From NCBI GenBank assembly GCA_003990745.1, contig RBNI01004032.1:1-14767 (forward strand): DNA of 14,767 nt. The letters are read 5' to 3'. The translations under genes and the position numbers were made by a program. Under the pieces are notes generated by a model. It did not search any database. It saw nothing but the letters and a program-made list of their open reading frames with translations, and was not told the origin of the DNA. The DNA is from Jimgerdemannia flammicorona. Lineage: Eukaryota > Mucoromycota > Endogonomycetes > Endogonales > Endogonaceae. This document shows, piece after piece, positions 401 to 14,767 of this stretch (position 1 is its first letter; every line of letters starts with the position of its first letter).

Positions 401-646
401 AGCGTTTTGTCAGCAAGTCCGAATCCAGCATTGCTACCCAGCACAACCAAATTCAGTGTTGCTATCCAGTACCACCATTTTCAGCGTTTTGTCAGCAAGT
501 CCGAATCCAGCGTTGCTACCCAGCACAACCGAATCCAGCGTTGCTATCCAGTACCACTGTTTTCAGCGTTTTGTCAGCAAGTCCGAATCCAGCGTTGCTA
601 CCCTCCACAACCGTTTCTGGCAACAATCAGCACTCCTGTCTGCTCA
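401..646 (+). repeat. Three tandem copies of an 82-bp unit
   Basis: The string AGCGTTTTGTCAGCAAGTCC begins at 401, 483 and 565, an exact 82-bp period. Copies one and two match over nearly the full unit with a few transitions; copy three diverges in its second half. Each unit also contains a shorter internal repeat built on AATCCAGCGTTGCTAYCC. Its position upstream of a TATA box suggests a U3 enhancer-like array, which is an inference. Short ORFs across it are repeat artefacts. Confidence 0.85.
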
Positions 647-2959: not shown

Positions 2960-3084
2960 CCACCTCTCTTGTAGGGACAATTGTTTCAATGATATCTCCA
3001 CTCACTAGCCCATTTCTCAGCACTATTGTCTCACACTTATGCCAGTTGAGTTTTGCTCCAGAGTGTGCCTCATACCATTCTACC

Positions 3085-3097
3085 ATCTTCTTAAGTG

Positions 3098-3149
<52 letters not shown>

Positions 3150-3192
3150 GTCACTTGGACTCCATTCCTTTATTAATCTTCTTAAGTGCCTC
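3085..3192. repeat. 17-bp target-site duplication around the minimal LINE insertion
   Basis: ATCTTCTTAAGTGCCTC occurs at 3085-3101 and again at 3176-3192, directly bordering the T-tract and the LINE 3' end. In the host RT frame the repeated sequence encodes EALKK. Exact identity of both copies points to a fairly recent event. Confidence 0.93.
3102..3175 (-). mobile_element. Minimal LINE insertion: 29 nt of 3' end plus 45-nt A tail
   Basis: On the minus strand this is 29 nt beginning TAATAAAGGAATGGAG and ending AAGTGACTAT, followed by 45 A (seen as T at 3102-3146). The same 3' terminus, TCCAAGTGACTAT plus poly(A), ends the LINE copy at 14719-14767. A changed form ends the copy at 8512. It is flanked by a perfect 17-bp duplication, so it is a complete target-primed insertion that kept almost nothing of the element. 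It sits inside the RT gene of an older copy of the same family and creates a run of Lys codons there. Confidence 0.9.
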
Positions 3193-3286
3193 AACATCTG
3201 CTACTAAACCAAGTCCAACCACCATATCATCCACAAAGATCCCCATAATCTTGGAGTTTATAGTTATATTGTGCTTCTAGAGCTTA

Positions 3287-4776
3287 GCAGTAATAGTGAA
3301 GATAGTTCTGGGGCTGATCTTGAAGCAGATGGCTGGAGCTGCCTCAGTAAAGTTTCTGAAGAGGCTTGAGAGAGTGAAAGTGGACTTTAAAGAGGCTGCT
3401 CTCTTAGAGGAGATATTGAAGATAGGGTTGACTATTGGTGAGATAGTGGTTCCAATAGCTCACTGTCTGAGATGAGACCCCAGAGTGGTCCAGCTACTAG
3501 TAAAGAGAGTGCTCATAATGATGACAGTCAAGACAAGGGAGAGGATAGAGGAGGTCATAGCTAAGTATAGCAAGGTGGTTGATATTGGTTTCTAGGTCTG
3601 AGAGGAGACTTTGTTTAGGATAAGAGATGTGGATGTCAGACTTCAGCTGGCTGAGAAAGAGACTATAGAGAAGCTGAGAGACTGGCCTTCAGTATTGATA
3701 TAGAGGGCATTTATCTATAAGATAATGAGAGTGAAGAGGAGTATAGAGGAGGAGGAGAATCTGATAGAGGTACTGGAGGAGCTCAGTAGAGTGATGGAGA
3801 GGTGGGCCAAGATATTACAGGCTTATGTGGACTCAATATACTTGGAGGTAGTAGATGAAAAGTGTATTCAGGTAGATAAGAGACAGTGGAAGAGGGCTCA
3901 GGAATATAAGAGATAGAGAGAGTTGCTGGCTAGTTTGAAGGAGAAGGAGAAGGTATTGTTCAGTTCAGATAAGACTATTGAGAGTACTTGGGAGAGTATC
4001 TGGGCTGATGAGGAGGTGGATAGGAGTGTGAAGGCTGGGGGGTTAGAGCCAGGAGGCAAGAGATCAGACTCTCTATAATGATAATACTGGAAGTATGAAA
4101 GGAAAGTAAGGATATGTGAAGGTAAGCTGGGGGCATATGGCTGAAGACTGGTGAGGATATAGAGATATTGAGGACTTACTGTATTCAATTTGGAGTATCT
4201 GAGATAGCAAGTGGGGAGCAGGTGGTTGAGGTTAGAGAAGATAAGCTGATAGATGTTTCTGAGGAGAAGTGAGATAAGTCTGTAAGTGCTAAAGCAGATA
4301 CTATGATACTCAGGATCAGCCAGCCAGTGACTTCTGGGGGCAAGAAGATTGGAGATCTGTAGTAGATATACTAGGTGATAAATAACTTAGCAGCTAAGGA
4401 GTTGAGGAATATAGACTTGTGAGTTATCAGTGAGGAGTACTGAGCAAGAGTACTGCAGAGAGATGGTATTGTGGAGGCCCTGGCAATGGAGGTGCTGACT
4501 ATATTTCTAGATGAAAAGAGTTATACAGTGGATGAGGTGAGAGAGGTAGAGATGGTGATAGCTACTAGAGAGCATACAGTCTTCTGATGAGAACAGAGGC
4601 ATAGACTGGAAATCTGGCAAGGGGCTTGCTTAGAGTACCAGAAGAAGATAGAGTTGAAGGATGATATAGTAATAGATGAGCTTTTGGTTGGACTAGAGGA
4701 TAAGCAGGTTGAGAAGGAGGAGGCTGCTGCTGAGTATAACTTGGACTTGATGAGGGAGGAGATAAATATAGAGTTG
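3287..4776 (+). pseudogene. LINE ORF1 remnant, charged and coiled-coil-like
   Basis: One frame runs from about 3287 to 4078 with only a handful of stops (TGA, TAG). It encodes Glu/Lys-rich, heptad-like sequence such as EEEENLIEVLEELSRVMERW (3743 onward). After a frameshift between about 4080 and 4310, a second frame runs to a TAA near 4776, with AAKELRNIDL, EALAMEVLTIFLDEKSYT and a Glu-rich end. LINE ORF1 proteins bind RNA and assist target-primed reverse transcription, often through a coiled coil and CCHC knuckles. I see the coiled-coil character but no CCHC motif. Its place directly upstream of the endonuclease domain is the main evidence that it is ORF1. Confidence 0.6.
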
Positions 4777-4833
4777 TAAAGAGAATATATCTATTTCAAC
4801 ATTATTCTCTATGAATAATACAACTAATATTTT

Positions 4834-7800
4834 TCATTGAATGTAAATGACCTAAGAGGTTCTGAGAGGCAAAATAATATTTTTACTTGGTTAAAGAGAT
4901 TAGAGACTGATCTCTTTCTTTTGCAGAATATATGTTGTGAGAAGGATCTTGATCAATAAGAGTGGACAAGGAAATAGAGTAGAGCTGCAGTTTGGAATAG
5001 CAAGGTTGGGCTACTGGTATAGAAAGGATGAGGTAAAATATATGGAAGCAGAAACTGGAGAGATCAAATGGTTTAGAGAGAGTGGTACTAGCCTAGATGG
5101 GAGCCAATTATAGTTAGATCTTGTTATTGCCCTATAGTTAGGAGTGAGTATATAGAGTGAATTGAGGGTCTTTTGGATAGTAGAGTACTTGTAGAGACAG
5201 GAGTGGAGATACTTGGGAGAGACTTCAACATAGTTTATTTAACATAGTTGGACAGATCAGATAGGGGGAGAAATGTAAGGAGTAGGAGTAGTGGGCTAGA
5301 AAATTAAGAGGAGATAGAGTGACTTAGTTTCTTGGTAGATGCTGGTCAAGCAATGTGGGGTAATAGGAGAGTCTATACCCATTGGGTGGAAGGCCTGAAG
5401 ACTAGGATTGACTGGGTACTGATAGTCAATGGCTGGGGTCTGGATGTCTGGAAGTTCCTGGAGATTGAGTGGTATCTATAGTCAGATTATTAGTGCTTAT
5501 TAGAGCATGGGTGGTTTGGGGGAAGTGGAGATGGGCCTGGACATTAGTGCCTCAATTTCTCTTTGCTAGCTGAGAAGAGACTATAAGATACTTAAGTAGA
5601 GAGTATTAGTTAGAAAGTAGATTGTTAGGTCTGAGAGAGTACTCCAGTAGGTGTTTGATAGATGAGGTTGAAGGAGGCTACTAGGGTTTACTAGAGTGAG
5701 GCTGGCAGGATGGCAGGAAGACAGCAGAGGAGAAGGATGACATGGGCCTCTGCTAGACTAACCCAGCTTTAGGAGAAATGGACTGCTATTTTGGCCTTAG
5801 ATGGAGTAGAGAATTGGAGATTAATGTGAGTAAAGCTAGAGGTTGCTGAGTTTCAACTGATGTTGAGGGAGGAGGAGAAGACTCTTGTGAAAGAAATAGC
5901 TATATGGCTGCATTAGCAGGGGCTTGAGAAGAGAGAGAGGCCATCTAAATATCTCTCACAACTTCTTCAGATAAGAAGGGTGAGGCAGAGGTGGGAGAAG
6001 ATCCTGGATTCTGAGAGTCTACTGGTGTATAGCTTACAAGATATTTTAGACTCTCTGAAGGAGAGATGGAGCAGTCTATGGAGTAAGGAGGAGGGTGGGG
6101 CCAATATTACTGAGATTGAACATACTTTGGAGGATTGACTCTCTCTACAAGTAAATGGGCTTGAGGGTTTAGTATTGCTAGTTCAGGAGGAGGAGATTTA
6201 CCAGATTCTTGCTATAACTAAGCTAGGTACTGTACCAGGAGAGGATGGTCTGCCCTGGGACTTCTGAAAGAAGATAGTGAGTGTCTCTGGAGTGCTGAGA
6301 GAGATGATAGCACTGTGTGACTTGATACTATAGTTAGAAAAGTAGGTGAGAGGGCAGGATCTGGGCCTAGTGACATTGTTGTATAAGAATAAGGGCAGGA
6401 GAGAGAATTGAAAGAACTAGTGACCAATTATACTCCTGAATATAAATAGAAAGATAGTCACTAAGGTAATTGTTGTAAGACTGTAGAGGGTAGCCCAGTA
6501 AGTACTTGGTGAGAAGCAATGGGGTTTTGTTGGAGACCAGCTTATTCAGAATGATACAGCTTGAGTTTATGGCATCATTGAAGAAGCCTGTGGGCTGGAT
6601 GAGAGATTAGTCTTCCTGGATCAGGAGAAGGCCTATGATTATGTCTGATGGATCTGGCTGGTGAAGATACTGGATAGAATTGGAGTTTCTCAGTAGTTTT
6701 AAGTGTTAATAATCAACCTACTGAAAGGGAGTAGGGTGGTGCTTATGTGCAATAGCTATCAGAGAGTAGTATTCTCTCCAGGTAGAGGCATTCCCTAAGG
6801 TGACCCACTATTTTCTATTTTGTATACTCTATCTTTAGAGCTATTGATGGATAGAATTTGGCATAAGATAGTTGGACTCTCTATATTTGAAATTGTCTAG
6901 AAGGTTGGGGTCTTTGCAGATGATATAGTAGTTGACTTAGATCAATTGTAGATATAGAGACTTTTAAGGAAATGGTGGAGTGGTATAAGATATACTCTGG
7001 GGTGAAACTCAACTAGCATAAGTGTGAAACAATAGTATTGGGCAATAGTCTAGTAGGAGGAGATATCATTGGAACAATTGTCCCTGCTAGAGATACTATA
7101 AGATACTTGGGTATTTTCCTTTCAGTCTATGGATCACTCCTCCCTAGGACCTAGTGAGAACAGTGGGTAGTTATTTGGAGAGAGGCTCTGCAGAGCTGGA
7201 GTAGCCATCACATCTCTTTGGCAGACTGCATTTCAATCTTAAATATCTACTGGTTTTCAAAGTTATAGTATTTGACTTATCATTTAGATATTCCAGCCTG
7301 GGTAGTGAAGATGCTATTTAAGCTAGCCAAGGACTGGATCTGGGCTGAGAGGTGGAGTCAGATTAGCTGGGAAATTCTGTCATTACCAGTAGATAGAGAA
7401 GGTCTTAGACTGATTAACTGCCCAAAAAGACTATATTACCTAAGAGTATGGTAGCTGAAGAGAGCTATAGAACTGAGGGGTGACAGCTGGGTTCCTCTGA
7501 TGAAAAAGATTTGGGAGATGAGATTTTCACCAAGGAGCTCTTTAGAAGATCTACTGTCTTTAGTTGAAATTAGGAGAAGTGAGTGCATGCAGTATAGGGA
7601 CTTCTGGTAGAGATTAGTTAATAGGACATACTACATTGATATTTACTGGTAGGAGACTGAGGAGAAGATGCTATGGAGTCTAGCAATATAGAGATAGAAT
7701 TGAGTATTATTGGAGTACTTCACTAATTGACTTTGATATTGGTAACAGAGTGGAGTATCAGAGAGAGTTAGGACAGGATGTATGGTCTAGTGGCTGGCAG

Positions 7801-8330
7801 ACAGTCAGTATTGAAGAGAGGTAAGACTGGAATGAAGTCTGGTCCTAGAGTGCAGAGATATAGTAATGGCTACTACTTAAGTATAGTAGCAATTGCTAAG
7901 AAGGAACATCATACTCAACTTTCATTTGGGCTACCTTGTAGAGGGTAGACAATTTGATTGTAAGAAGTATTATAATATAGAACAGGAAGGGGGGTTTGTG
8001 CAGATACCAGAATATTGACTGGGGGAGTATGAGATACTTAGAGACTTTTGGTTAGCAGTTGGAGATAAATTAGGTATTGTGAGAAGAGAAGATGGTGAGA
8101 GGGGTCAATAGGAGGATTTGAGAGATAGATTGGTGAGGGGGGGGTTGGAAATGAGTAGCTCACAGTTGGTTGAGTATTAGCTATATAGGTAGGGCTGGCA
8201 AGATACTGGTTGTTTGTTTTTGAGGAAGGGGGGTAATTGAGTTTGGGAGTATAGTTGGCAAAATGAGAGGAGTTGATAGTAGATGTCTTGAGGGTGATAG
8301 CTGGGATGGGGCCTGCTGGGGGATTATTAG
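4834..8330 (+). pseudogene. LINE ORF2 remnant: endonuclease and reverse transcriptase
   Basis: The endonuclease starts with SLNVNDLRGSER (4834 on), then GRDFN (DFN at 5221-5229), RIDWVL (about 5406) and SDY at 5482-5490, where the family has catalytic SDH. His to Tyr is one C-to-T change. RT motifs follow: PGEDGLP (about 6236), LLYKNKG, FLDQEKAYDY (about 6611), a QGDPL-like GDPLF (about 6798) and FADD at 6913-6924. A downstream frame at 7272-7454 matches the conserved region after RT (AWVVKMLFKLAKDWIWAERW). The end, near FVQIPEY, is homologous to copy 2. There are many stops, and a frameshift lies between 6924 and 6978. The protein would nick target DNA and copy its own RNA; this copy is dead. 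Confidence 0.85.
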
Positions 8331-8509
8331 CAATATTTGGTAGAGAAGATTTATAGACAGAGTGAGAAGAGGGTTATAGTAGTAAATAGTAAGGTGATTT
8401 TTAAATATGAGAGTATGGAGGAGGGGTCTCCCTAGGAAGATTGGATAGTGGGTTGAGGTACTGTATTTATATTTGATAGACTGATAATAAATAACAAAGT
8501 CTAAGAGAC

Positions 8510-8512
<3 letters not shown>

Positions 8513-8581
<69 letters not shown>
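8513..8581 (+). repeat. Poly(A) tail of LINE copy 1 (69 A)
   Basis: An uninterrupted A run follows AGACTAT. It marks the 3' end of the LINE and abuts the truncated integrase end of the gypsy element on the other strand. Confidence 0.95.
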
Positions 8582-8582
<1 letters not shown>

Positions 8583-9707
8583 CCTCTAGTTTTTATAACT
8601 ATAAAACTTCTACTATATTCTAATATATCAGAACTTTGTCTTTTATCTTGATAATCTTCAAGAGCTTGTAAATATTTTTCATATTATTTTGTTATAGAGT
8701 CTGTACCTTAGTTATATAATTCTTAGCCTTCTTTCTAATTTGATATAGTCTCTATATTTCTGTATCTATATATTTTCATATAGTATCTCTATTAGATAAT
8801 AGGATTCCTTGAGAACTTTCTTCTCTAAATAGCATTTCTCAAGGGGTAAAATGAGTACTTTGTGATTGGATATTCTAGAGAGCAGATAATACTATTGATA
8901 GATAGTAATCCTAGTTTTTGTAATTATTATAATCTTAGTAATAACATTCTTAAGAATCTTATTGGTTCTTTCTGCCTGTCTATTTTCTTGAGAGTGATAG
9001 GCTGTAGTTTGAATGTACTAGATCTTACATATACTTTTTATAGAGAACCTTAAAGAACTGATTCATGAATTCTGTTTCTCTATCTGTAATTACTTATGTT
9101 AGAGTCTTAAATCAGCAGATAATTTCTTTGTTAAAAAAATCAGCTATTGACTATATATTAGCTTTTTTGAGAAGTTCTGCCTCTATCTATTTTGTAGAAA
9201 GATTTACTATGATAATAATATATTAGTTACTAGTTAAAGTTAAGGGTAGAGGGCCAATTATCTATTGCTATATGGGCAAAGAGTACTGGTTCTATGTATG
9301 CTAATCCTGGGATCTAATTTTATTAGTCTTGTTTCTATTTCTAGTATTTGTCATAGGTTCTGATAAATCATCTGATGTCTTTCTCTATTTCTAGCCACTA
9401 TATTGTTCTCTTTACTTTATTATAAGTATTTGTTCCTTCTAGATAGTCAAGTTTATATACTGATTTTATTACTTGCTCTTTCTTATATTTAGGTATAACT
9501 AGTAGCTTTTCTTTCTTCAATATTTCTCTATCAGTTTCAAATTATTTCTATATTCTGTTGATAATTATTTGTGTTTATTTTTCCAGATATTGGGGTATCT
9601 TTTGCTATCTCAGATAGGTAATAATTCTATAGTAGAGCTCTTTATTTATAATTAGTTTACTAGTTCAGAGTTCTTTAAAGTATCTGTGAGAGAGTATTTG
9701 TATTTGT
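8582..9707 (-). pseudogene. Gypsy integrase remnant, 3'-truncated
   Basis: After the RNase H end motif LSQIL comes a degenerate zinc-binding region (about 9350-9420): KVKRTI and YDKY stand where integrases have a GH-containing segment and CxxC, so both zinc cysteines now read Tyr. Next is IAIDNWPSTL (about 9250), the usual position of the catalytic-core start. The best-kept part is TAYHSQENRQAERTN at 8961-9005, matching the family signature T-x-YHPQ-x-N-GQ-x-ER-x-N with the catalytic Glu present. SLEYPITKYSFYPL follows. Frame changes and stops are frequent. The C-terminal part, including any chromodomain, is missing at the LINE poly(A) junction. Integrase would insert the cDNA; this one is inactive. 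Confidence 0.85.
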
Positions 9708-10056
9708 ATTTGTATTAGTGCTCCCAATAAATTAAATCAAAGGCTAATTCAATTCAAGATTCAATTTGAACCCTATTTTTCAAAATATAATAACTTGATT
9801 AATACACATCCAAATTCAATAATATTTAGCTTATTATATTCCTCTTATATAAGAAAATCTAACAAGCTAAAAATTATTAAATTTGGATATGTATTTATCA
9901 AGTTATTATATTTTGAAAAATAGGAGTTAAATTGAACTCTCAATTTAATTCAAATTTGATTTGAATTAAAAAATCTCTAATTCAATTTAATTTGAATGAC
10001 TCTCAATTTAATTTGATTCAAATTGATTCAATTTATTTGAGAATACTAATTTGCAT
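9708..10056. repeat. 8-bp target-site duplication of the MITE
   Basis: ATTTGTAT lies at 9708-9715 and ATTTGCAT at 10049-10056. They differ by one C/T, as expected if decay continued after insertion. The left copy lies in a short TATTTG tandem, so its exact register could shift by one unit. Confidence 0.75.
9716..10048. mobile_element. hAT-like MITE, 333 bp, inside the gypsy RNase H-integrase junction
   Basis: The ends form imperfect inverted repeats: TAGTGCTCCCAA-TAAATT at the left and, reverse-complemented from the right, TAGTATTCTCAAATAAATT. A second pair of long inverted arms lies inside (about 9775-9835 and 9870-9930), sharing TTTTTCAAAATATAATAACT. There is no coding capacity. Flanking 8-mers ATTTGTAT and ATTTGCAT are the duplicated target. 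TIRs starting YARNG and 8-bp duplications are hallmarks of the hAT superfamily. Removing the insert joins gypsy sequence SERTNAN to NTLSQIL, rebuilding the usual G-x-x-N-x-x-AD-x-LSR linker. AT-rich short direct repeats fill the right half. Confidence 0.82.
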
Positions 10057-11432
10057 TAGTTCTTTCAGAATAGTATATAATAGTTATATTATAGGCTTGC
10101 AAATTTATAATTTATTTAACATAGATTTTTTTAGGTTGTTCAATCATTAGTAGCTAGGTGAGGGCTGAGTGGTCTGTCTGAATAGTGAAGTGTCTTTTGG
10201 CAAAATAGTAATGGAACTTTTTTATAGCTCAGATAACTGTGAGATATTTCAACTTATAGGATTTGTATTCTTTTTTAGCTCTTTGGATTTCTTGACTAAG
10301 ATATATAATAATATACTTTACTTTATCTTCTTCTAAGCCAGGACTGCCTCTAGTTCTTATATACTTATATCTATCTATAGGATAAACTCTTGAGTCCAAT
10401 CAGGTCTTCTAAAGATAGATACTTAAATCAATCTAATCTTGAGCTTATCAAATGCCTTTTGTTATCTACCAGTCTATTAGAACTTGATATCCTTCTTGTT
10501 GAGTTCATAGATTGGATCTGCAATATTGGAGAATCTCTTAATAAATCTATAGTAATATATGATAAATTCTATGAAGGTTTGGACTTTAATAATAATAGTA
10601 AGCCTTAGATATTGTTACTGCTTATATCTTGAAGGGGTCTGTGGATGTTCCATCTTAATTAATAATATGGCCAAGAGTAAGAAATCTCAATTTCTACAAA
10701 CTTATACTTCTTGAGCTTAATGTATAGACTATGGTTCCTCAACTTCTTCATCATCTATTAGATATACTGTAGGTTCTCTTCTGGTATCTTACTATAGATA
10801 ATTATATCATCCATATAAATCATCAGCCATCTTTCCATATTATAGTAGAAGATTTTCTTTATTATTTATTAGAAACTTGCTAGTATATTATATATTCTAA
10901 ATGTTATTTGTAGGTAGATATAGGTTTTATCTGGAGTGATGAAGGCTGACTTTTTACTTACTGCTTTAGTGAGACTAATTTGATAGAATTCTGAATATAG
11001 GTCTAAGATACTGTAATACTATACTTCATTTCCCAAAGTTATAAAGATATTACTAATAAAAAGCAGTAGTTATTAATCCTTTTTGATAGCTAGATTGAGC
11101 TTCCTATAGTCTATATAGAGTCTTAAGGTGAATTTTCCTAACTTATTTCTTTTCTTCAGAACTAGTATAACTAGTGAAGCCCAAGGACTACTGGCTTATT
11201 TGATGATACCAGCTTCTTTTATCTGTTTGATTTCTTTTCTGAGCCATTCACAATAGGCCAGCAGAATGGATCTTGCTTTTTGATAGATTAGTTCAGTATC
11301 TCCTATATCTATGTATATTATAATAGTAGTATGGAGTCTTTTCTTTAATATCTTTGAAGTCTGTGGCCAGAATATCTTTGAATTTATAGAGTATCTTCTT
11401 GAGTTTCTTTTTGAGTGGGAATTTATTCTCAA
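10057..11432 (-). pseudogene. Gypsy reverse transcriptase and RNase H remnant
   Basis: The minus-strand frame 11432-11196 holds the RT entry region IDIGDTELIYQKARS and ends KQIKEAGIIK, the usual lead-in to RT. Next come ASSPWASLVILVLKK and LYIDYRKLN (about 11090-11190). The catalytic YMDD is at 10806-10817 within MIYMDDIIIYSK, followed by two stops, then KLKKYKF where the family has KCxF (Cys to Tyr). RNase H is shown by QTDHSALT (DHSALT at 10158-10175) and by IINLQAYNITIIYYSERTN just before the MITE. A frameshift near 11340 separates this from the dUTPase frame. It would copy the element RNA to cDNA and degrade the template; stops and shifts make it inactive. Confidence 0.88.
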
Positions 11433-11499
11433 TGATATAACTGTATTTATTCATGGTTCTCTTCTTCTTGTTGTCTAGTTTGGTAATTTTAATACTAGC

Positions 11500-12090
11500 A
11501 AATACTTCTCTTTCTGTAGATCTGAATTCTTTCCTTCCCCTCTCTGTTTTCTTCAGCTTCTTGACTTCTATAATCTTTAGCTGTAGGACTGAAAAGATCA
11601 GTATCTGTACCAGTCAATTCTTCTTCTTAATTAGAAATGAGATTGTTAAGTTGTAATTCCTAATAATGAGTAGTATTTCTTCAATATAATCTAAATCAAT
11701 AACTTCTACTTTAATAGTAATTTTACTCTTAGTCAGACTACTTCTTATCTTGAGGATTCCAATATAATCTTTTGGAATAGTTATTTCCAGACTAGTTGTA
11801 AGTAGAGTAGTTGTCTGGGGTTTAAGTATAATTTCTTTAACTATAGTGATATCTATTTTGGCTACATTTTCTGACTTATATTCTGATAGAACTACATTAG
11901 GGTAAATATTCTGAATCTTGACCTTGATCTTTTCTTCATCATTACTGTCTTCTAGAAGAGCTGGTGGTTCATTATCCTTCTCTTCTATCTCTTCTTCTCT
12001 TGTCTGTTTCTCAAGAGCCTTCAGTCTTCTTTTATAATAGATCTTCTTGATTGTGCTAGTATACTGGTAACAGTTATTTATATATTTCAT
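11500..12090 (-). pseudogene. dUTPase domain embedded in the gypsy polyprotein
   Basis: An open minus-strand frame of 158 codons starts at 12090 and stops at a TGA (11614-11616). The same frame continues to about 11340. After an acidic linker (EEEIEEKDNEPP) all five motifs of trimeric dUTPases can be followed: AKIDIT for motif 1 (A-G-x-D-L); RSSL for motif 2 at 11734-11745; VIDLDY for motif 3 at 11686-11703, then EEILLIIRN; LVQILI for motif 4, just after the TGA at the place of a conserved Arg; and TERGRKEFRST for motif 5 (RG-x-GGFGST) at 11515-11547. Several motif glycines are replaced by Lys, Glu or Arg through G-to-A changes. dUTPase hydrolyses dUTP to dUMP and pyrophosphate, limiting uracil in cDNA. 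This copy is dead. Confidence 0.83.
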
Positions 12091-12177
12091 GCAGTATATT
12101 CTGATTCCATAGAGGCAGACTCTTTATAGTATATACCCTTTAATAATTCTCTTACACTATTCTTCTTTACTTATTTA

Positions 12178-12945
12178 TCTAACCTTCTTTTTCTTTTTCT
12201 GAGTAGTCACCATGTAGGCCTCTTCTTGCTTACTCTTTTCTTTCTCTATCTTAAAGAGTACTCTCTTATTGATATTAATAAGAATTCTTATCTTCTGGGC
12301 ATTTAGGTCAATTATTTCTCTAGCTTTATAAAATCACTAGTTGCTAATGAGGATATCATAGTTGGTTATATTAGTTACAATTATATCTACCAAAATGATT
12401 GCTCTTCCAAACTTGATGGGCATATCTTGGATCTTTTCTAGAGATATGGCTCTTATTCTATCTGCTGTAATAAATACTAACTTAGTTGCTTCTTCAACCT
12501 CCCAATCTAGATAGTCTGCTACTTTCTTACTAAGAAGATATTCTTCTACTCTAGTGTTAATGATGGCCTTGAAGATTCTATCTTCAATTTGATAGGTTGT
12601 ATAGGCAGAGATCTTATAATTATCTTTACTTTCTTCTTCTAAGTTTTCTTAAATATTATTGGTCTCAGTTATCTTCCAATCCTACTTCTTAATTATCTTG
12701 GTAAGTCTATATCTCATTTACTGTCTGAATGTGAGAATTTCTACCAGCTGGCCAAAGATTGCATTGACCTTCTGTTGGATGAGATCCTTAAAGATATTAT
12801 ACTTAAAGATCTTGATTTTATTAAGCTTCTTTTTCTTTTCTCTCTTATTGGCTAGGGTAGTTTCTTGAATAATATCTTGAACAGCTTGTTCCAGCTCTAT
12901 ATTTTGATCTATTTCTTCAGCTTGGCTTTCTGTAGCAGTCTTCAT
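12178..12945 (-). pseudogene. Gypsy pre-protease and aspartic protease remnant
   Basis: One minus-strand frame runs from an ATG at 12943-12945 to a TAA at 12175-12177 with four internal stops. The first part (YNIFKDLIQQKVNAIFGQLVEIL) resembles the segment that precedes the protease in fungal gypsy elements. The catalytic loop is INTRVE (NTRV at 12547-12558), where an active enzyme has DTGA. Asp to Asn, Gly to Arg and Ala to Val are all G-to-A or C-to-T changes. Downstream, NYDILIS with a stop before WFYKARE matches the family D-x-ILGM-x-WL motif. A Lys-rich tail ends the frame. The protease would cut the polyprotein; here the active site is lost. Confidence 0.78.
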
Positions 12946-12949
12946 CTAT

Positions 12950-13837
12950 TTTTCTACTGAATTCTTTTTGAGTCTTTCTGATAGTCTCTATAAGATTTCT
13001 TATAGATATCCTTTTTAGTAATTTGTATAGAATAAGCCTCTTATTCTTCTTTATCTGATTCTCTAATTTCTTCAAAAGTAATAGTATTGGCCTGTTCTTT
13101 ATTTCAAGTAGCATTGCTTTGCTAGATCTTGCACTTAGTCTCACTTATACATTAATATAAGGAGTGGTCTTCTTCTCTACAGGTGTAGCAGGTGTCTCTC
13201 TTTTTATCTAAGATAGTAGTAAACTTCTGAACTAAATAGTAATTCCTTTCTTTGATTTCCTTTACCATATTTCCTAGATGAGCAGTCATTTTAGTAAACT
13301 TTTTGACTAGTTCCTCTATGAGATTACTATTCTCTACTACTCAGTAGCTCTTAGCTAAGGTGTGTTTTGATTGATTACTATAATAGGAATCACACTAGTT
13401 GTCTTAGGTACTTCAATTCTAACTCTAGTGACTCTTTCTATTATGTAATCTTATAGATATCTAGCTATTCAGTATTGCTGAGTATAGATGACTTTTTGTT
13501 GTAGATCCAGAACTACTAGTGATGAGCAAATTACTATAGCTATCTCTGAATATACTCTCTTTATGAAGATAGCTTCAGCTACTTGATCTTGAATAACATC
13601 AGTATAATCTGCAAGAATTATCTAATATTGAATTCTAGTGTAGAATATATTTAGATCCTCACTCATTTCTTAGTATATAATATTGAGCTAATTCTTTAGA
13701 GCTTGCTTGATCTCATCTATATAATAGATTGCTCAGAGCCAGGTCTTCTATACTATCAGTATAGTATTATCATCATTTTCTATATGAGTTATAGTTATAA
13801 ATACTGCTTTTATAAAATCTCATAGGCTGAAAGACAT
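12950..13837 (-). pseudogene. Gypsy gag remnant with capsid and CCHC zinc knuckle
   Basis: A start codon at 13835-13837 opens a frame reading MSFSL, stop, DFIKAVFITITHIENDD. The capsid-like part has EDLNIFYTRIQY and EAIFIKRVYSEIA, with stops at Gln/Arg positions. After a frameshift near 13330 the frame gives EELVKKFTKMTAHLGNMV, then the knuckle CYTCREEDHSLY, stop, C at 13149-13190, an exact C-x2-C-x4-H-x4-C spacing if the TAA is read as one residue. An acidic tail (EEIRESDKEE) follows to about 12950. Gag packages the element RNA into particles. The start is chosen because it precedes the first gag-like residues. About 100 bp of leader separate it from LINE copy 2. Confidence 0.8.
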
Positions 13838-13940
13838 AAGAACTACTTACTGTCTTACTGTCAGAGTTTTTATAGCAGTATACATACTACTTAAAATTAT
13901 CAATGAAGATAATAATTGATTCATTTGAGATATATTTGTA
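13838..13940 (-). other. Residual 5' leader of the gypsy element
   Basis: About 100 bp of AT-rich sequence lies upstream of the gag start. I see no LTR and no primer-binding site. The sequence changes character at about 13940, where homology to the LINE begins. Confidence 0.4.
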
Positions 13941-14549: not shown

Positions 14550-14730
14550 CGAGGTTTGATGACAAGGATATGTGAACAGAGTGGAGGGAGAGTGGGAATT
14601 ATATTCGATAGAGTGGTGTTTCATTGAGAAGAGGTAGGAGGGAGGGGCCCCCCTAGGGGGATTGGATAGGGGGAGGGCTCATTGTATTATATAGGATAGA
14701 TGGGGGTAATAAAGGATGAGTCCAAGTGAC

Positions 14731-14733
<3 letters not shown>

Positions 14734-14767
<34 letters not shown>
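14734..14767 (+). repeat. Poly(A) tail of LINE copy 2, cut by window end
   Basis: An unbroken run of 34 A follows GTGACTAT and reaches the last base, so its true length is unknown. Confidence 0.95.

What the first reader, a model, noticed from the sequence alone, without database searches (positions are those of the whole stretch)
11500..12090. dUTPase domain between protease and RT of a fungal Ty3/gypsy element
Seen: five trimeric-dUTPase motifs in order in one minus-strand frame (AKIDIT; RSSL; VIDLDY; LVQILI; TERG-x-x-x-F-x-ST), preceded by a protease and followed by RT. Known: dUTPases occur in betaretroviruses (near the protease) and non-primate lentiviruses (between RNase H and integrase), and are not a standard part of Ty3/gypsy polyproteins. 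Inference: this lineage captured a dUTPase, perhaps to keep uracil out of cDNA in cells with low dUTPase activity. I cannot tell from here whether this arrangement has been described.
Basis: partly seen in the sequence, partly recalled or inferred. Interest (0 to 1): 0.78.

Follow-up and report, generated by a model that had tools for sequence, protein, structure and literature searches.

The report
dUTPase inside a fungal Gypsy retrotransposon
A decayed copy of a fungal jumping gene carries, between its protease and reverse transcriptase, an enzyme domain that destroys dUTP; this arrangement was already known in fungi, but other elements in the same genome have the two enzymes in the opposite order around a shared cysteine-histidine motif.

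Summary
Minus-strand 11901-11515 is a trimeric-type dUTPase (PF00692, 39.7 bits on its first open piece, E 4.9e-10) with one in-frame TGA at 11616-11614. It lies between protease (12609-12280) and RT (11156-10677) of a Ty3/Gypsy remnant, 13935-8584. A less decayed copy fuses CCHC-PR-Cys/His motif-dUTPase-RT-RNase H in one 1111-aa frame (L062). Of 8 environmental relatives, 6 show PR-dUTPase-RT by Pfam.

The arrangement is in print for fungi (PosPlaTy3-5; Tmt1 cited; PMC2864245, PMC6431247) and rotifers (PMC5408684): a new member of a known kind.

Added here: three other Gypsy families of this genome (A1-A3; one with a chromodomain) carry dUTPase before the protease, and in A1 and A3 a homologous Cys/His motif lies between the two enzymes, so the order is reversed. 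The dUTPase tree sets the window's lineage (B) apart from them (93/88), but one shared capture is not excluded (AU p 0.109 for B with A1 and A3). The role, removing dUTP during reverse transcription, is inferred.

The parts
8584..13935 (-). Remnant of a Ty3/Gypsy element (gag to integrase); both LTRs missing; about 75% identical to copy L064
   Evidence: blastn of the L064 element: two blocks 13935-10049 and 9713-8584
13155..13331 (-). Gag C-terminal part with the zinc-knuckle (CCHC) region
   Evidence: tblastn to the L064 frame, 51% identity, E 2e-17; CCHC in P0001 by Pfam
12280..12609 (-). Aspartic protease; the window copy has stops and a changed active-site stretch
   Evidence: tblastn 69% identity, E 6e-43; Pfam RVP_2 on the open copy
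12043..12210 (-). Conserved Cys/His motif (C-x-H-x5-C-x2-H-x3-C-x2-C in L062 and L064), putative zinc finger without a Pfam match
   Evidence: tblastn 57% identity, E 9e-20; homologous to the motif of families A1 and A3
11515..11901 (-). dUTPase domain, motifs 1-5, one in-frame TGA at 11616-11614
   Evidence: Pfam PF00692 39.7 bits on the first open piece; tblastn 71% over 129 residues
11154..11511 (-). Linker between dUTPase and RT; the frame changes near 11313
   Evidence: tblastn in two frames
10677..11156 (-). Reverse transcriptase, several stops
   Evidence: tblastn 62% identity, E 1e-59
10085..10473 (-). RNase H, followed closely by the insert
   Evidence: tblastn 63-67% identity, E 3e-39
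9714..10048 (-). 335-base A+T-rich insert in the element, predicted to fold into a long hairpin (113-nt inverted repeat)
   Evidence: gap between blastn blocks; repeat I2; fold z -14.5
8584..9713 (-). Integrase part of the same element, truncated at 8584 next to a poly-A run
   Evidence: blastn 74% to L064; integrase reading frames in L064 by eye

Best explanation
This is a RIP-like-decayed, truncated copy of a high-copy fungal Ty3/Gypsy family whose polyprotein reads Gag(CCHC)-PR-Cys/His motif-dUTPase-RT-RNase H(-integrase). In intact relatives the dUTPase would be made as part of Pol, carried into the virus-like particle, possibly cut free by the protease, and would hydrolyse dUTP to dUMP next to RT so that less uracil enters the cDNA. 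Shown: domain identity, position, open fusion in relatives, the main catalytic residues kept in distant relatives. Inferred: packaging, processing, activity and benefit. The domain was acquired in, or before, the common ancestor of the PR-dUTPase-RT lineage, not recently in this genome.
For: PF00692 match and order of domains. One open frame of 1111 aa (L062, CCHC to RNase H), 1061 aa (L063, gag to RT) and 900 aa (L064, gag end to RT), each with PR-dUTPase-RT. In 6 of 8 environmental proteins the order PR-dUTPase-RT is seen by Pfam (P0005, P0006, P0007, P0010, P0011, P0063); P0009 begins inside PR with a weak trace and P0008 ends inside the dUTPase. In the domains extracted, the motif 1 Asp and the motif 3 Asp and Tyr (roles recalled) are kept in 8 of 8 (P0005-P0011, P0063). 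RT-first survey: one search scored 150 places of 5973 candidates; I fetched 10 that by eye are absent's list; 2 ran off the contig; 6 of the other 8 have the dUTPase at this place, and 2 are truncated or deleted. N/S relative to a neutral expectation is 0.32 for dUTPase, 0.30 for RT, 0.39 for PR (18-22 copies per part). dUTPase tree and RT tree both separate B from the A families.
Against: No activity, expression or transposition data. Each of the three open B copies read in full departs from the usual form in at least one motif position, so none is shown to be active. Among the distant relatives, P0063 departs in motif 2 and P0005, P0009, P0011 and P0063 in motif 5, which P0008 lacks. In one search the acidic spacer (0.37), the Cys/His motif (0.42) and the linker (0.22) also lie well below 1, so the constraint signal is not specific to the dUTPase; the pairs are not independent and the rates come from the same data. 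The domain is free of stops in only 18 of 35 distinct copies (19 of 37 loci, two copies held twice; 39 loci were given), a set chosen by similarity. Support for the B side is 93/88, below the starred level.
Confidence: 0.8

Rival explanations
1. The domain has become a structural or regulatory part of Pol without dUTPase activity, as described for the dUTPase-related protein of bovine immunodeficiency virus.
For: A dUTPase-related protein that lacks activity but is still needed is reported (PMC4261571, title and start of abstract in the listings). The three open B copies each depart in a motif position. In family A2 motif 5 departs from the usual TxRGxGGF form (recalled form).
Against: In the window's lineage the motif 1 Asp and the motif 3 Asp and Tyr are kept in 8 of 8 distant members.
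Confidence: 0.15
2. All dUTPases in the Gypsy elements of this genome descend from one capture and were moved within Pol (one shared acquisition), rather than from separate captures.
For: The Cys/His motif next to the dUTPase is homologous in families B, A1 and A3 (scores 164 and 130, shuffle maxima 55 and 49). AU does not reject B with A1 and A3 as one clade, p 0.109.
Against: The free tree places A1, A2 and A3 on the side of the five solved cellular dUTPases (82/91, open) and B apart (93/88). B with A1, A2 and A3 together is rejected weakly, p 0.034.
Confidence: 0.3
3. The dUTPase stretch is a chance or independent insertion of a host gene into this one copy.
For: None beyond the single decayed window copy.
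Against: Same position in the three open copies read in full and in 6 of 8 testable RT-selected copies, and in environmental relatives.
Confidence: 0.01

Closest known systems
PosPlaTy3-5 of Postia placenta (Novikova et al. 2010, PMC2864245; passages read)
   Same: Gypsy element of a fungus with dUTPase between PR and RT; other families of that genome carry it at the N- or C-terminus of Pol
   Different: Sequence not compared here (not held); the paper's file legend speaks of dUTPase domains from chromodomain-containing elements, whereas Pfam found no chromodomain in three C-terminal pieces of one B copy
Tmt1 of Tuber melanosporum and the Phanerochaete chrysosporium elements (Riccioni 2008; Novikova and Blinov 2008; seen only as cited in PMC2864245, PMC5408684, PMC6431247)
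   Same: Fungal LTR elements with dUTPase; PMC6431247 cites Riccioni for the place between PR and RT
   Different: Original papers not read; sequences not compared. PMC5408684 cites the Tuber paper for 'basidiomycetes', PMC2864245 calls Tuber an ascomycete
Rotifer Juno, Vesta, TelKA and planarian Burro elements (PMC5408684, PMC6431247; passages read)
   Same: dUTPase between PR and RT
   Different: Animal hosts; Juno has an extra zinc knuckle after, not before, the dUTPase; relation of the domains untested
Betaretroviruses (order recalled) and Taro bacilliform virus polyprotein (P0012)
   Same: dUTPase in a retroelement polyprotein near PR
   Different: dUTPase lies before PR (P0012: 947-1070, PR 1116-1206), as in the A families here, not between PR and RT

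Membership tests
Trimeric dUTPase (PF00692) | Conserved motifs and profile match above cut-off | tested here: met
   39.7 bits in the window piece, 83.5 bits in P0001; cut-off 22
Trimeric dUTPase (PF00692) | Enzymatic dUTP hydrolysis | not testable with these tools
   No assay; motif 1 Asp and motif 3 Asp and Tyr kept in 8 of 8 relatives
Ty3/Gypsy LTR retrotransposon | PR-RT-RNase H-integrase order | tested here: met
   PR, RT and RNase H by Pfam on P0001; integrase frames after RNase H in L064-L066, by eye; three L064 end pieces gave no Pfam match
Ty3/Gypsy LTR retrotransposon | Long terminal repeats | tested here: inconclusive
   Found in 2 of 4 B loci examined, L064 and L066 (97% over 300 nt, 96% over 249 nt, start spacing about 6.25 kb); missing beside the window copy, where the only LTR-like hit is about 60 nt at 784-842
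Chromoviruses | Chromodomain after integrase | tested here: inconclusive
   No Pfam match in three C-terminal pieces of one B copy, L064; present in A2 copy L023 (PF00385, 63.9 bits). No other B copy, and no A1 or A3 copy beyond one integrase piece, was scanned
PR-dUTPase-RT fungal Gypsy elements (PosPlaTy3-5, Tmt1) | dUTPase between PR and RT in one frame | tested here: met
   L062, L063, L064 (Pfam on L062)
PR-dUTPase-RT fungal Gypsy elements (PosPlaTy3-5, Tmt1) | Common descent with those named elements | not tested
   Their sequences were not held

The most novel reading that the evidence does not exclude
Within one fungal genome, two separate Gypsy lineages exchanged or rearranged a block made of dUTPase, a Cys/His motif and protease, so that the enzymes swapped sides around the same motif (B: PR-motif-dUTPase; A1 and A3: dUTPase-motif-PR). 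In favour: the window family's motif is much closer to that of A3 and A1 (scores 164, 130) than to that of its own distant relatives (45-50). The motif would be a retroelement-specific partner of the dUTPase and protease, perhaps a nucleic-acid-binding or cleavage-site module.
Probability: 0.4. Interest if true: 0.5.

Novelty: new member of a known kind. Interest (0 to 1): 0.35.

Why it matters
It suggests that the dUTPase in this kind of fungal Gypsy element is an old, kept part of Pol rather than a local oddity. A genome with both orders, in high copy number and with open frames, would let one ask whether dUTPase helps retrotransposition and how polyprotein modules are reshuffled. The shared Cys/His motif is a concrete lead that I did not meet in the passages read.

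Tried and rejected
Host dUTPase gene: a search of the own genome with a solved dUTPase stretch (3f4f, yeast by recall) returned, in 150 places scored of 4922 candidates, retroelement copies among them; the two opened (L069, L073) belong to a further family, A3, and no host gene was identified. So 'captured from this host' could not be tested.

Relatives lacking the domain: looked for by RT. L079 stops matching the element inside the end of the dUTPase; L082 joins gag to the linker by an internal deletion that removes PR, motif and dUTPase. Neither is an intact relative without the domain.

Selection: one search gives low values for every part (0.22 to 0.42), spacer included, so I do not lean on it.

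Independent captures: favoured by the free tree, but AU p 0.109, 0.034, 0.148 and 0.344 for four constraints, named after the tree was seen, leave it open. P0063 was counted with B there; P0035, which the free tree puts inside B on a long branch, was not. The tree used 48 of 68 extracted domains; 20 near-duplicates or fragments were dropped beforehand (among them P0052, an A1 fragment; P0065, a fragment close to P0063; P0064, partial; ginger and stand-alone near-copies). FIV (P0066) was never extracted. Most stand-alone rows were found by a search with the B domain, so sampling leans towards B-like sequences.

Species: not named. The 18S rRNA search did not complete.

Confidence of the best explanation was lowered from 0.85 to 0.8 on checking, because each open B copy departs in a motif position; the no-activity rival rose from 0.12 to 0.15 for the same reason.

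Full report
What is in the window. The minus strand from 13935 to 8584 is one Ty3/Gypsy element, about 75% identical to a less decayed copy in the same assembly (L064), in two blocks separated by a 335-base insert at 10048-9714. Piecewise alignment gives gag with the zinc-knuckle region 13331-13155, protease 12609-12280, a Cys/His motif 12210-12043, dUTPase 11901-11515, RT 11156-10677 and RNase H 10473-10085, with in-frame stops in most parts and a frame change near 11313. The dUTPase frame has a single stop, the TGA at 11616-11614. PF00692 finds the domain from its first open piece alone at 39.7 bits, E 4.9e-10, and the same piece matches solved dUTPases, the best at E 1.2e-6.

Decay. Of 1197 differences from L064 in 5096 aligned bases (all four blastn blocks, two of them LTR fragments of about 60 bases), 892 are C-to-T or G-to-A and 176 are the reverse, counted from L064 to the window. 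The rate is 51% at CpA, 59% at TpG and 66% at CpG, against 22% at CpT and 21% at ApG, with 38% at CpC and GpG. This is the pattern expected of repeat-induced point mutation (RIP, recalled). L064 is a related copy, not the ancestor, so direction is an inference.

Relatives in the genome. With PF00692, 150 places were scored of 5391 candidates, each above the cut-off. With the window's dUTPase piece, 150 places of 4568 candidates. These are lower bounds. Two kinds appear among the copies opened. Kind B, the window's own, reads CCHC-PR-Cys/His motif-dUTPase-RT-RNase H in a single frame of 1111 aa in L062; L063 and L064 agree as far as their frames reach, which is the end of RT. LTR pairs in L064 and L066 start about 6.25 kb apart and are 97% and 96% identical over 300 and 249 nt; L065 and L067 showed none in the stretches held. 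Kind A has the dUTPase before the protease: A1 (L021, L024, L026), A2 (L022, L023) and A3 (L069, L073). A2 carries a chromodomain (L023). L022 also shows an A2 copy inserted into a B copy: the L064 match is split around the A2 element, overlapping by 8 bases.

Relatives elsewhere. A search with the PR-dUTPase part of L062 gave 9 proteins among the 7987 candidates scored; seven, P0005-P0011, are 30-52% identical over 37-64% of the query. P0005, P0006, P0007, P0010 and P0011 have PR, dUTPase, RT and RNase H in that order, with a CCHC hit before them in all but P0007; P0008 ends in the dUTPase; P0009 begins inside PR with only a weak trace. P0063, found by another search, also has PR-dUTPase-RT. 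The other two of the nine are Taro bacilliform virus (P0012), with dUTPase before PR, and a protein with Pol_BBD and integrase matches, copia-like by recall (P0013).

Trees. In the dUTPase tree of 48 rows the 12 B rows fall on one side of a branch (93/88) together with P0063 and one long-branched stand-alone protein, P0035. The four A rows fall on the other side, in a weak group (82/91) with five solved cellular dUTPases (yeast, plant, alga and amoebae by recall), Taro virus and others. Holding B, A1 and A3 together costs 14.1 log units, p-AU 0.109; B with all A, p 0.034; the A families alone, p 0.148; A1 with A3, p 0.344. In the RT tree of 13 rows the three A rows (A3 partial) are set apart with 97/92, Taro virus joins them with 82/73, and the seven B rows and P0063 lie outside; the frog row is very long; holding A and the window's family together gives p-AU 0.17. 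So separate captures are favoured, not proved.

The Cys/His motif. In B it lies between PR and dUTPase, in A1 and A3 between dUTPase and PR. Local score of B (L064) against A3 is 164 and against A1 130; in 2000 shuffles each the maxima were 55 and 49. Against its own distant relatives P0005, P0010 and P0011 the same L064 motif scores only 49, 45 and 50, reached by 4, 2 and 1 of 2000 shuffles. P0010 and P0011 exceed the shuffles against A1, P0011 also against A3; P0010 against A3 was reached by 4 of 2000, P0005 against A3 and A1 by 8 and 98 of 2000. By blastp the three segments of B (L064) and A3 (L069) align in swapped order: dUTPase E 6e-20, motif E 4e-16, PR E 6e-6. P0006 and A2 show no such motif (by eye). 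Pfam has no match there at E 0.01.

Function. The motif 1 Asp and the motif 3 Asp and Tyr are kept in 8 of 8 distant members, which argues for an active enzyme; the three open B copies each depart from the usual form in some motif position, which argues for caution. Pooled N/S ratios are dUTPase 0.32, RT 0.30, PR 0.39, spacer 0.37, Cys/His 0.42, linker 0.22, so they add little. The uracil-exclusion role follows from what is known of retroviral dUTPases; Novikova et al. mention replication in non-dividing cells (PMC2864245, passage).

What is in print. PMC2864245 (passages): dUTPase in Postia placenta elements at the N-terminus of Pol, the C-terminus, or between PR and RT, with earlier reports from P. 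chrysosporium and T. melanosporum, role and origin unclear, apparently independent acquisitions. PMC5408684 (passages): between PR and RT in rotifer families. PMC6431247 (passages): same place in planarian Burro, fungi and rotifers. [quoted passage not shown] PMC11105155 (passage): dUTPase domains enriched with retroviral families in Entomophthora muscae. PMC3248453 (find only): no word beginning with dUTP. PMC4531489 (find only): no mention of gypsy, retrotransposon, fungi, Ty3 or caulimovir. I did not meet the Cys/His motif in those passages, and I made no answered search aimed at it (one search was not accepted), so I make no claim that it is unpublished.

Host. The genome is a fungus by 18 Fungal_trans match rows (0 of 14 control genomes). 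No species was named.

Verdict.

Noticed in passing
window 9714-10048: A 335-base A+T-rich insert interrupts the element between RNase H and integrase; it is predicted to fold into a long hairpin (-79 kcal/mol, z -14.5), like a MITE.
   Followed up: partly
window 3102-3161, 8498-8583, 14718-14767: Three long A or T tracts with nearly the same flank (ATAGTC..), in both orientations, look like 3' ends of poly-A retrotransposons; one abuts the truncated end of the Gypsy element at 8584.
   Followed up: no
window 3001-8500: Strong, sustained GC skew (about 0.28 to 0.58 in 1-kb windows) with only short open frames (up to 162 aa in a scan for 80 aa or more), perhaps a decayed non-LTR element.
   Followed up: no
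G000 as a whole: The window shows RIP-like decay, yet no DNA_methylase (PF00145) match was found in the assembly at E 1e-5 (0 matches, 4 candidates scored), and Fungal_trans gives only 18 match rows. Introns or gaps could hide genes. A powdery-mildew-like fungus that has lost RIP, with old decayed copies, is one guess (absence of RIP in Blumeria hordei: PMC10648671, start of abstract in the listing).
   Followed up: partly
L022:483-6511: An A2 (chromovirus) copy sits inside a B copy, with an 8-base overlap of the split match that could be a target duplication.
   Followed up: partly
window 401-646: Tandem 82-base repeats (three copies, D3, 93% and 66% to the first) in the left part of the window.
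   Followed up: no
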